64,000 nucleotides of DNA, from assembly GCA_951813295.1 (NCBI GenBank), contig CATOTI010000002.1, forward strand, positions 496,001 through 560,000, in the 5' to 3' direction. Positions 35,172 through 38,470 of the stretch are shown here, in pieces; position 1 is the stretch's first letter, and each line of letters opens with the position of its first letter. The position numbers and the translations under genes are program-made. The stretch comes from an uncultured Pseudomonadales bacterium. Its GTDB lineage: Bacteria > Pseudomonadota > Gammaproteobacteria > Pseudomonadales > Azotimanducaceae. The notes below the pieces were generated by a model. That model was not told the DNA's origin. It was given only the letters and a program-made list of their open reading frames with translations, and did no database searches.

Positions 35172-36503
35172 GGTAGTGTGCCGAAGGATGTGCAAAAAGT
35201 TGGGTGGCCATGGTGTGCTTTTAGACACGACATCAAAAAAGGCACACACACGAGATGACCACCCAGAAGAAGCGTAAGACGACGGCAGTCGAACTGGAAG
35301 AGGTACTCAGCAGCGAGGGCGACCAGCTGCGCACGATGATGCGCGAGATGCTCCAAGAGCTATTGGAAGCGGAGATGGCCAAAGTGCTCCGCGCGCAACC
35401 CCACGAACGCAGCGACGAACGCCGGGGCTATCGAGCCGGTTACTACCCGCGCGGCTTGTTGACCCGCGTCGGCAAGCTCGAGCTGCGTGTACCGCGCGAC
35501 CGCGAAGGACGCTTTTCCACGGAGCTGTTTGCGCGCTACCAGCGTTCCGAACAAGCCTTGGTCAGCGCGCTGGCGCAGATGTATATCGAGGGCGTTTCGA
35601 CGCGCAAGGTCAAAGCGATCACGGAGGAGCTGTGTGGCCACAGCGTCTCGGCCTCGACCATCTCGCGGATCAACAAGCGCCTCGACAAGACGCTCACCGC
35701 ATTCGCCACCCGACGACTCGAAGAACCGACGCCGTATCTGATCCTCGATGCGCGTTATGAGAAGGTCCGTGAGGCGGGAGTGATCCGCTCTCGAGCCGTG
35801 CTCATTGCCATTGGCATCAACTGGGAAGGACGCCGCCAGATACTGGCCGTGGAGCTCGCTCAACGGGAGAGTCGAAGTAGCTGGAAAGAGTTCCTCACCA
35901 CGCTGCGTGATCGCGGCTTACACGGCGTCGAGTACGTCGTCAGCGATGATCACGATGGGCTGCGACGGGCGATCCAAGAAGTCCTCACCGACAGCGCCTG
36001 GCAACGCTGCTACGTGCACTTCCTGCGCAACGCCCTCGACCACATTCCGCGCAAGGCCGATGACGATTGTCTGCAGGAACTGCGCTGGCTCTACGATCGT
36101 CGCAACGTCGATGAGGCGCGATCGGATCTCGCCGCTTGGATCGGCCGATGGCACACGAAGTATCCGAAGCTCACCGACTGGGTGGAGGAAAACATCGAGC
36201 AGACGTGGACGTTCTATCGCCTCCCGCATCGCCATCACAAGCACATGAAGAGCACCAACATGCTGGAACGGTTGAACGAGGAAATCCGTCGACGAACGTA
36301 TGTGGTGCGGATCTTTCCGAACGCGGCGAGTTGCTTACGCCTGGTGCGGGCGCTGGCCGTTGAGACCCACGAAAACTGGCTCGAACAGAGCCGCTACTTA
36401 AACATGGACTTGCTCAAGGAGCTGAAGAAGGAACAGCTCCGTCAAGCCGCTTAACCGCATGCCAGGCCACTCAACCCTTTTGCACAACTTGCGGCACACA
36501 ACT
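35172..36503 (+). mobile_element. IS256-family insertion sequence
   Basis: Transposase flanked by imperfect inverted ends (GGTAGTGTGCCG...TGTGCAAAA / AGTTGTGTGCCG...TGTGCAAAA) and an exact 8-bp duplication AGATTCCC at 35164-35171 and 36504-36511. Confidence 0.9.
35255..36454 (+). CDS. IS256 family (mutator-type) transposase
   Basis: 399 aa; GYRAGYYPRGLLTRVGKLELRVPRDREGRFSTELFARYQRSEQALVSAL...LDARYEKVREAGVIRSRAVLIAIGI...KSTNMLERLNEEIRRRTYVVRIFPN. Confidence 0.96.
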   Translation: MTTQKKRKTTAVELEEVLSSEGDQLRTMMREMLQELLEAEMAKVLRAQPHERSDERRGYRAGYYPRGLLTRVGKLELRVPRDREGRFSTELFARYQRSEQALVSALAQMYIEGVSTRKVKAITEELCGHSVSASTISRINKRLDKTLTAFATRRLEEPTPYLILDARYEKVREAGVIRSRAVLIAIGINWEGRRQILAVELAQRESRSSWKEFLTTLRDRGLHGVEYVVSDDHDGLRRAIQEVLTDSAWQRCYVHFLRNALDHIPRKADDDCLQELRWLYDRRNVDEARSDLAAWIGRWHTKYPKLTDWVEENIEQTWTFYRLPHRHHKHMKSTNMLERLNEEIRRRTYVVRIFPNAASCLRLVRALAVETHENWLEQSRYLNMDLLKELKKEQLRQAA

Positions 36504-36610
36504 AGATTCCCCCATCAGCCAACTCAGACTCACCGCCGATCCGGCGGGGGCGTGGGGGCGGAGCCCCCACAAGAAAGAGCAATCAGAATCCCAGCCTACT
36601 CCTCCGGTCA
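36504..36610 (+). repeat. Hairpin-rich repeat copy 1, right part
   Basis: agattcccccatcagccaactcagactcaccgccgatccggcgggggcgtgggggcggagcccccacaagaaagagcaatcagaatcccagcctactcctccgg; matches 36826-36897 and 38251-38281. Confidence 0.88.
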
Positions 36611-36727
36611 GTCAGAGCTTCGCAGCCCACCGGAACAGCGCTTTCCAGATCATCGAGCGGCACTTCCCACACATCCCGCGAAGTCGACCAACCCGCCCTA
36701 CAAATCCCGCCCGATATCTACCGACGC

Positions 36728-36897
36728 CTTCCGGCGAACACGCCAACCCCGGGGTCCCCCGCGCGCAACGCGCGCAGGGGGGAACCACCCGCAGCGATTC
36801 CGCGCCGAACTGGGCGCGCGGCGAGATTCCCCCATCCGCCAACTCAGACTCAGCGCCGATCCGGCGGGGGCGTGGGGGCGGAGCCCCCACAAGAAAG
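36728..36897 (+). repeat. Hairpin-rich repeat copy 2 (empty IS256 site; interrupted at its right end by IS110 element)
   Basis: Near-identical to copy 1 halves joined across the IS256 insertion. Confidence 0.88.
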
Positions 36898-38250
36898 ATG
36901 TATGGGCCACCCCATCGTTGCAACAGTCATTGGCGACTTTGGCAATCAGTCGGTCTGCACAAATGTATCCGGCCTGTTAATGGGCTATTTCACGCCCTGG
37001 CCTGAGTGGGATCCGCGGCTCGTCGGCTCAATTAGCAAGGCGGGTTCGTAGACCCCTTTTTCTTGCCCGAGCTTCGACGAAGCTGGATCGACTGATGAAG
37101 CCTGCCGCTAACGAGATGCCCGATGGGCAACCAAAATCCGTTCCCTACAACTGCCGCTACGCGCGCCCTGGATCGTACTCCTCACCACTGCGCAGGACTG
37201 CCCATGACAGGCGCGCCAGTTTGTTCGCTAACGCCGTGATGATCACGTTCGGGTGCAAGCCCCGCGCCTCAAGGTCATTCAGCCAAACACCTAGGCGGTG
37301 ATCCTCCCGGCACAGGTTGTAGTAGCAGCTGCGCGCGCCGTGTATCAGCAGACTCCGAACGTAGCGGTTGCCGCGTTTGCTGATCCCCAGCAATCGCGTC
37401 CGGCCGCCTGTCGAGTGTTGCCGTGGCACCACCCCGAGCCACGCCGATACATCTCGGGCGCGTGTGAACTGCTCACCCTTGCCGATCGCCGCCACCAACG
37501 CCGTCGATGTCAGCGTGCCAATGCCCGGAATCGTCTGCAGACGCCGGCAGTCATCGCGCTCTCGCGCGATCTGCTCGATCTCCCGGGTAATCGTGCGAAC
37601 TTCATCATCTAAGTAACGCCACTGTCGTTGCAGTAATCCCAAAAGCGCGCGTAGACGCCGCGACAATGTGCTCTCGTCGTCCGCCAGTATCGTCGGTAAG
37701 GCCTTCGACAACGCTGTCGGACTCGTGCGCACCGTGATACCTCGCTCCAACAGAAACGCTCGGATCTCGTTGATGACGCTTGTGCGCGTCTTCATGAGCT
37801 GCTGACGGACGCGGTGCAGGGCTTGCTGATCGTGTTGCTCGATCGTCTTGATCGGCACATATCGCATGGTCGGGCGCCGCACCGCCTCCGCAATCGCCAA
37901 GGCGTCGTTGAAGTCGTTCTTGTTGGTCTTCACGTACGGCTTGACGAACTGCGCTGCCATCAATCGAACGTCATGACCGTCGCGTTCAAACTGCCGCGCC
38001 AGGTGTTGTGAACCAGCGCACGCTTCCATGCCGATCACACATCGGCTGTGAGTGGCGACAAACTCAGCAAGCTTCGCTCGGCTGAACTGCTGCCGGAACA
38101 CCGGCTTACCCGTGTGCGTCGTACCGACCACGTGGAAGGTGCTCTTGCCGACATCGATACCTAGGGTCACGATCTGCGTCATGGGATGGTCTCCTCGAGG
38201 GAACGTCGTGTGGGGACACTGATTGTCCACTCGGGGTGGACCATCCCATT
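36898..38250 (-). mobile_element. IS110-family (IS1111-like) insertion sequence
   Basis: DEDD transposase; subterminal inverted repeats ATGGGCCACCCC (36902-36913) and GGGGTGGACCAT (38233-38244), 11/12; removal rejoins repeat copy 2 (aagaaag|agcaaacagaatcccagcctactcctccgg). Confidence 0.85.
37157..38182 (-). CDS. IS110 family transposase
   Basis: MTQIVTLGIDVGKSTFHVVGTT...CVIGMEACAGSQHLAR...KTNKNDFNDALAIAEA...LQTIPGIGTLTSTALVAAIG...LGVVPRQHSTGGRTRLLGISKRGNRYVRSLLIHGARS. Confidence 0.96.
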   Translation of the reverse strand: MTQIVTLGIDVGKSTFHVVGTTHTGKPVFRQQFSRAKLAEFVATHSRCVIGMEACAGSQHLARQFERDGHDVRLMAAQFVKPYVKTNKNDFNDALAIAEAVRRPTMRYVPIKTIEQHDQQALHRVRQQLMKTRTSVINEIRAFLLERGITVRTSPTALSKALPTILADDESTLSRRLRALLGLLQRQWRYLDDEVRTITREIEQIARERDDCRRLQTIPGIGTLTSTALVAAIGKGEQFTRARDVSAWLGVVPRQHSTGGRTRLLGISKRGNRYVRSLLIHGARSCYYNLCREDHRLGVWLNDLEARGLHPNVIITALANKLARLSWAVLRSGEEYDPGRA

Positions 38251-38470
38251 AGCAAACAGAATCCCAGCCTACTCCTCCGGCCAACTCCGCGGCGACGGCG
38301 CCGACGTCGATCGGCTCGTAGATTCGTGCACTGCGGCTCGGCGCGGCTTCGTCGAAATCGAGAAAGGTAGCCCGATAGCGCTGGTAGATCGCCCGGGCAA
38401 GTTCGAAGTCCGTGGGTGGGCGCAGCATCGTAGTCGGCTCCGTTCGGGTGCGATCGGCGGCTCTCGCCAT
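38249..38470 (-). pseudogene. 3'-truncated small hypothetical protein
   Basis: MARAADRTRTEPTTMLRPPTDFELARAIYQRYRATFLDFDEAAPSRSARIYEPIDVGAVAAELA then runs into repeat sequence (GGVGWDSVC*). Confidence 0.5.
38251..38281 (+). repeat. Repeat copy 2, right fragment beyond IS110 element
   Basis: agcaaacagaatcccagcctactcctccgg matches copy 1 right end. Confidence 0.8.

What the first reader, a model, noticed from the sequence alone, without database searches (positions are those of the whole stretch)
36898..38250. IS110/IS1111-like element inserted beside a palindrome in repeat copy 2
Removing 36898-38250 rejoins aagaaag|agcaaacagaatcccagcctactcctccgg, which matches intact copy 1 (aagaaagagcaatcagaatcccagcctactcctccgg). 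The insertion lies a few nt from GTGGGGGCGGAGCCCCCAC, consistent with the known preference of IS110-family elements for REP-like targets. The roughly 260-nt non-coding segment downstream of the transposase (36914-37156) and the subterminal inverted repeats fit the IS1111 group, whose guide (seek/bridge) RNA lies in that position.
Basis: partly seen in the sequence, partly recalled or inferred. Interest (0 to 1): 0.6.

Follow-up and report, generated by a model that had tools for sequence, protein, structure and literature searches.

The report
RNA-guided jumping gene in repeat
This is an intact, recently active bacterial jumping gene of the IS1111 group; it carries its own guide RNA and has placed 17 nearly identical copies at one exact position inside a repeat found many times in this genome, so it is a clear new example of a known mechanism.

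Summary
A 1353-bp IS1111-group element lies at 36899-38251, one base right of the quoted 36898-38250; both choices rejoin the same empty site. It encodes a 341-aa DEDD/Transposase_20 recombinase on the minus strand, has 12-bp subterminal inverted repeats with 7-nt and 3-nt tips, and a downstream non-coding region. (1) The genome holds 17 full, at least 99% identical copies, all in one orientation at TTGC|T of the same dispersed repeat; 24 exact empty sites remain. (2) A covariance model built from 27 relatives, without this element, gives one hit in the 64-kb window: 36953-37101, minus strand, 69.5 bits. That RNA carries two segments matching the two target strands, in the IS1111 order, and segments matching the joined element ends. 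In the relatives the same RNA positions change with each element's own insertion site (26-27 of 27 matches at five positions in a fixed-register test). The target is a genome-specific repeat with a hairpin, not a demonstrated REP. This is a new member of a known kind. RNA expression and activity were not tested.

The parts
36899..38251 (-). complete IS1111-group insertion sequence, 1353 bp
   Evidence: 17 copies of 1351-1353 bp with the same ends; empty site restored on removal
37157..38182 (-). transposase/recombinase gene, 341 aa, DEDD catalytic domain plus Transposase_20 domain
   Evidence: PF01548 1.3e-19, PF02371 6e-24; NCBIfam NF033542 'IS110 family RNA-guided transposase' 4e-102; motif GVVPRQHSTG = G--P----TG read
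38233..38251 (-). left end: 7-nt tip TAATGGG plus left subterminal inverted repeat ATGGTCCACCCC
   Evidence: sequence; same layout NNATGNN-ATG in 49 relatives
36899..36913 (-). right end: subterminal inverted repeat GGGGTGGCCCAT (11/12 match to left) plus 3-nt tip ACA
   Evidence: sequence
36953..37101 (-). predicted seekRNA/bridge RNA
   Evidence: only hit in the window of model R1 built from 27 relatives without this element: 69.5 bits, E 9.6e-16
37056..37065 (-). target guide, top-strand-pairing segment (RNA CAAGAAAAAG), pairs target -1..+9 of TTGC|TTTTTCTTG
   Evidence: same model region as in relatives
37034..37039 (-). target guide, bottom-strand-pairing segment (RNA CUUGCU), matches target -5..+1
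   Evidence: homologous columns match own target in 26-27 of 27 relatives at -4..+1
37007..37012 (-). donor guide, segment complementary to left end about +4..+9 (RNA AUCCCA)
   Evidence: aligned with the donor segment of relatives and 38 nt from the next one, as in most of them
36963..36968 (-). donor guide, segment copying right end plus the shared base (RNA AUACAU)
36978..36984 (-). alternative donor match CCCAUUA (complement of the 7-nt left tip); possibly coincidental
   Evidence: not at the position used by relatives
36813..36898 (.). left-hand part of the interrupted repeat copy 2, including hairpin GTGGGGGCGGAGCCCCCAC at 36872-36890
   Evidence: direct repeat of 36493-36578, 92%
38252..38283 (.). 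right-hand part of the interrupted repeat copy 2
   Evidence: direct repeat of 36578-36610, 94%
36493..36812 (.). intact repeat copy 1 with an unoccupied target site

Best explanation
The element is an autonomous IS1111-group insertion sequence. Its recombinase binds a roughly 150-nt RNA transcribed from the region downstream of the gene. In the first loop of this RNA, CAAGAAAAAG pairs with the top strand to the right of the cut and CUUGCU pairs with the bottom strand to the left, overlapping at the junction, so the protein cuts and joins only at TTGC|T[C/T]TTTCTTG. A second pair of segments, AUCCCA and AUACAU, matches the abutted left and right ends of the excised circle. The element leaves as a circle whose joined ends form a promoter (TTGCAA-17 nt-CATAAT) that can transcribe the gene and then the RNA. 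It re-enters another copy of the genome's abundant repeat, with no duplication beyond one shared base. Shown here: the element's anatomy, the 17 same-phase insertions, the RNA fold by covariation, and the change of guide with target among relatives. Inferred: transcription, protein binding, circle formation and current activity.
For: Seventeen full copies in one 6-Mb genome, at least 99% identical, six others identical to the window copy, all with the frame open. All sit at TTGC|T in one orientation. Twenty-four exact empty sites; at up to one mismatch 51 sites versus 22 for the reversed-pattern control. Guide matches in this non-coding region: best target score 16, reached by 1 of 1000 dinucleotide shuffles. 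Relatives: own-target guide score at least 12 in 37 of 50 elements versus 112 of 2450 swapped pairs. Fixed-register test: RNA columns 67-71 equal target -4..+1 in 26-27 of 27. RNA structure: 16 of 22 pairs with two-sided changes, 91% of cells paired versus 30-40% when slid. Independent model hit 69.5 bits. Donor guide score mean 12.0 versus 7.8 with other donors and 7.1 with shuffled RNA. Circle-junction promoter.
Against: No expression or biochemical data. Seven of 17 occupied sites have TC rather than TT at +1/+2, one mismatch to the top-strand guide, and three have a shorter T run, so pairing is not perfect at every copy. The preference for perfect sites is not significant (7 of 13 versus 7 of 25, p = 0.16). 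The single-sequence fold is unremarkable (z = -1.0). Which of two donor segments is used is not settled. No Rfam family matched at gathering threshold, so the RNA call rests on a model made here.
Confidence: 0.93

Rival explanations
1. The insertion site is chosen by the recombinase protein (or by a DNA hairpin in the repeat), and the RNA matches are incidental.
For: The site is 8 bp from a strong hairpin, and several IS families prefer hairpin-rich repeats. A second, unrelated IS (IS256 family) also clusters around these repeats.
Against: In 27 relatives with different targets the RNA positions track the target base by base; swapped targets score far lower. The insertion is outside the hairpin, at one exact base, whereas the IS256-type element inserts at scattered positions with a duplication of about 8 bp.
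Confidence: 0.04
2. The 17 copies were spread by duplication or recombination of the repeat with the element already inside, not by repeated transposition.
For: The repeat is itself dispersed and occurs in tandem pairs, and gene conversion between repeats could carry the element.
Against: Occupied sites differ among themselves in the repeat sequence: left flanks TTCTGATTGC, TTCTGTTTGC, TGCGGCTTGC; right flanks TCTTTCTTG, TTTTTCTTG, TTTCTTG, while the elements are nearly identical. A few copies may share history, e.g. L013 and L014 carry the same three substitutions.
Confidence: 0.05
3. The RNA works only with its target loop (short seekRNA); the apparent donor-matching segments are by-products of conserved ends.
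For: For ISEc11 a short RNA holding the target segments was sufficient for transposition (PMC11187229). Donor ends are conserved, so matches can persist without function.
Against: Donor matches follow each element's own ends better than other elements' ends (12.0 versus 7.8) and sit at a conserved spacing. Durrant et al. predicted donor-binding nucleotides in many IS1111 RNAs (PMC11208160).
Confidence: 0.3

Closest known systems
IS1111-group elements with demonstrated seekRNA (ISEc11, ISPa11, ISKpn4, ISPst6; Siddiquee et al. 2024, PMC11187229)
   Same: DEDD transposase of 330-350 aa, sTIRs, downstream non-coding RNA region, top-strand match 5' of bottom-strand match, one-orientation insertion at one base, promoter at the circle junction; ISPa11 also targets a repetitive hairpin element
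   Different: Different target and guides. Nearest transposases found are about 50-56% identical, so it is a separate element
IS110/IS621 bridge RNA system (Durrant et al. 2024, PMC11208160)
   Same: RNA with a target loop and a donor loop, each matching both strands; circular intermediate; REP targets
   Different: RNA is downstream rather than upstream, guide order within the loop is reversed, long sTIRs present, and the shared base at the junction is one nucleotide that varies among relatives rather than a CT pair
Sphingomonas IS1111-type elements (L079-L082), Sinorhizobium plasmid elements (H1-H4) and those from the window's own family (L160-L166)
   Same: Transposase relatives; for those whose ends or RNA were examined (not H1-H4) the same end layout and the same RNA family
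   Different: 44-56% transposase identity and different insertion sequences, matched by their own guides where tested

Membership tests
IS1111 group of the IS110 family | DEDD (RuvC-like) N-terminal domain and Transposase_20 C-terminal domain | tested here: met
   PF01548 and PF02371 above curated cut-offs
IS1111 group of the IS110 family | Transposase length 330-350 aa with G--P----S/TG motif | tested here: met
   341 aa, GVVPRQHSTG; criteria from PMC11187229
IS1111 group of the IS110 family | Subterminal inverted repeats with 7-nt left and 3-nt right tips | tested here: met
   ATGGTCCACCCC / GGGGTGGCCCAT, 11 of 12; TAATGGG and ACA. The 7-nt left tip is stated in PMC11187229; the 3-nt right tip rests on general knowledge of the group
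IS1111 group of the IS110 family | Long non-coding region downstream of the transposase | tested here: met
   243 bp between stop codon and right sTIR, against about 50 bp between left sTIR and ATG
IS1111 group of the IS110 family | Specific target, fixed position and orientation, no extra target duplication | tested here: met
   17 of 17 copies, one shared ambiguous base only
seekRNA / bridge RNA | Conserved structured RNA in the non-coding region | tested here: met
   covariation in relatives and independent model hit
seekRNA / bridge RNA | Two segments matching top and bottom target strands, top-strand match 5' (IS1111 order) | tested here: met
seekRNA / bridge RNA | Donor-binding segments matching the joined ends | tested here: inconclusive
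   present and better than controls across relatives, but two candidates for one segment in this element
seekRNA / bridge RNA | RNA expressed, bound by the recombinase and required for transposition | not testable with these tools
   needs RNA-seq and assays
REP element as target | Short (20-40 nt) extragenic palindrome associated with a RAYT (Y1) transposase | tested here: not met
   Target lies in a repeat with a roughly 160-bp conserved core; no PF01797 match in the genome

The most novel reading that the evidence does not exclude
In this branch of IS1111 elements the exchanged core is a single base that is itself variable. The first base of the element equals the first target base in 49 of 50 elements, taking all four identities, and the RNA carries it twice, once in each loop (columns 71 and 154). 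That would make the core programmable, unlike the strongly preferred CT core of IS621. The alternative reading, a one-base target duplication from a staggered cut, is not excluded.
Probability: 0.35. Interest if true: 0.5.

Novelty: new member of a known kind. Interest (0 to 1): 0.4.

Why it matters
It is an unusually clean natural case: one element, 17 nearly identical recent insertions, 24 exact empty sites in the same genome, and a guide that explains the site. Together with its relatives it gives about 50 natural guide/target/end combinations for a compact (341 aa) RNA-guided recombinase, and it supports a donor-matching part in IS1111 RNAs, on which the two founding papers differ in emphasis.

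Tried and rejected
Rfam scan of the whole window: no family at gathering score. Single-sequence folding alone does not support a structured RNA (z = -1.0); covariation evidence was needed. A first pattern for empty sites was wrongly composed and found nothing. Free inverted-repeat searching for element ends gave many false pairs, so ends were re-identified with the NNATGNN-ATG layout. CCCAUUA was first taken as the donor guide because of its 7-nt match; homology to relatives favours AUCCCA instead. The idea that the repeat is a classical REP with its own RAYT was rejected.

Full report
WHAT IS THERE. The window holds a complete insertion sequence at 36899-38251 on the minus strand. The quoted coordinates 36898-38250 are equivalent within one ambiguous base; the end layout of the IS1111 group favours the former. 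Taking it out restores an uninterrupted repeat copy like the one at 36493-36812. The gene at 38182-37157 encodes 341 aa with the DEDD and Transposase_20 domains and the G--P----TG motif that Siddiquee et al. list for IS1111 transposases (PMC11187229). The left end is TAATGGG followed by ATGGTCCACCCC; the right end is GGGGTGGCCCAT followed by ACA.

COPIES AND TARGETS. The genome (6.0 Mb, 3 contigs) has 17 full copies. Six others match the window copy exactly and the rest differ at one to six positions, one of them with a 2-nt deletion near the stop codon. All 17 lie in the same orientation at the same base of the same repeat, TTGC|T. The right flank is TCTTTCTTG in seven, TTTTTCTTG in seven and one to two bases shorter in three. 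The exact site TTGCTNTTTCTTG occurs 24 more times without the element; a rough base-composition estimate for a 12-base pattern in this genome is about one by chance. With up to one mismatch the count is 51 against 22 for the reversed-pattern control. Among 15 other genomes of the genus neither the repeat nor a close copy of the element (best 47% identity) was found, so the repeat is specific to this genome at the sensitivity used. Its well-conserved part extends about 55 bp to the left and 105 bp to the right of the insertion point.

THE RNA. Among relatives found in named genomes and in the window's own order I identified 49 elements by the layout NNATGNN-ATG with matching sTIRs. From 27 of them, leaving this element out, I aligned the downstream region. 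The consensus has 22 pairs, 16 of which keep pairing through changes on both sides; 91% of cells pair, against 30-40% when the partner is slid by 1 to 3 columns. The covariance model made from it has a single hit in the window, at 36953-37101 minus strand, 69.5 bits, E about 1e-15. It also hits relatives not used in building it, including enterobacterial ones at 38-39% transposase identity.

GUIDES. In this RNA, CAAGAAAAAG complements the target's top strand at -1 to +9, and CUUGCU copies the top strand at -5 to +1, about 17-20 nt further on. Only 1 of 1000 shuffled RNAs does as well against any of the ten target variants. The order, top-strand match first, is the IS1111 order. Across relatives, each RNA matches its own target much better than others' targets. 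In a test with no search freedom, RNA alignment columns 67 to 71 equal target positions -4 to +1 in 26 or 27 of 27 elements, against 8 to 14 expected. The 27 include some close relatives, so these are not 27 independent events. Later in the RNA a second pair of segments matches the joined ends; own-end scores average 12.0 against 7.8 for other elements' ends and 7.1 for shuffled RNAs. In the window element the segment homologous to that of relatives is AUCCCA, 38 nt before AUACAU; CCCAUUA is a second candidate.

MECHANISM. The best reading is RNA-guided cut-and-join transposition through a circle. Joining the ends creates TTGCAA-17-CATAAT, as described in kind for ISEc11. Transcription, binding and movement are inferred from the family. 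The first base of the element equals the first target base in 49 of 50 elements (41 of 42 after removing near-duplicates; none of 10,000 permutations reach this), while the next base agrees in only 21 of 50. This marks a one-base shared core, which could be programmed by the RNA or could be a one-base duplication.

COMPARISON. The element meets every sequence-level criterion of the IS1111 group that I could test. Durrant et al. [quoted passage not shown] showed the target-matching seekRNA and natural reprogramming. What is added here is a new element with a large within-genome set of insertions, and position-by-position covariation for one IS1111 branch. It is a new member of a known kind.

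Noticed in passing
35172-36503 (gene 35255-36454): An IS256-family element with a duplication of about 8 bp (AGATTCCC) sits in the neighbouring repeat copy. The genome has about 17 large copies; by coordinates most lie in or within a few hundred bases of the same repeats, but at scattered positions, so two unrelated ISs pile up in one repeat family.
   Followed up: partly
36493-36812 and 36813-36898 plus 38252-38283: A dispersed, partly tandem repeat (units up to about 320 bp) with at least 40 matching places in this genome and none detected in 15 genomes of the same genus; origin and means of spread unknown, no Y1/RAYT gene found.
   Followed up: partly
L163, L164, L166: IS1111 elements in genomes of the same genus as the window use the same RNA family (86-110 bits) but different insertion sequences; L164 and L166 (two genomes) share a target context and have non-coding regions of about 400 bp.
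   Followed up: partly
L114: Besides its own ends, this element has an extra inverted repeat of about 26 bp outside its borders, apparently part of the target.
   Followed up: no
window:37157-38182: NCBIfam reports a weak match (20 bits, far below its cut-off of 100) to the TIGR-Tas endonuclease model, in line with the published relation between Tas proteins and IS110 recombinases.
   Followed up: no
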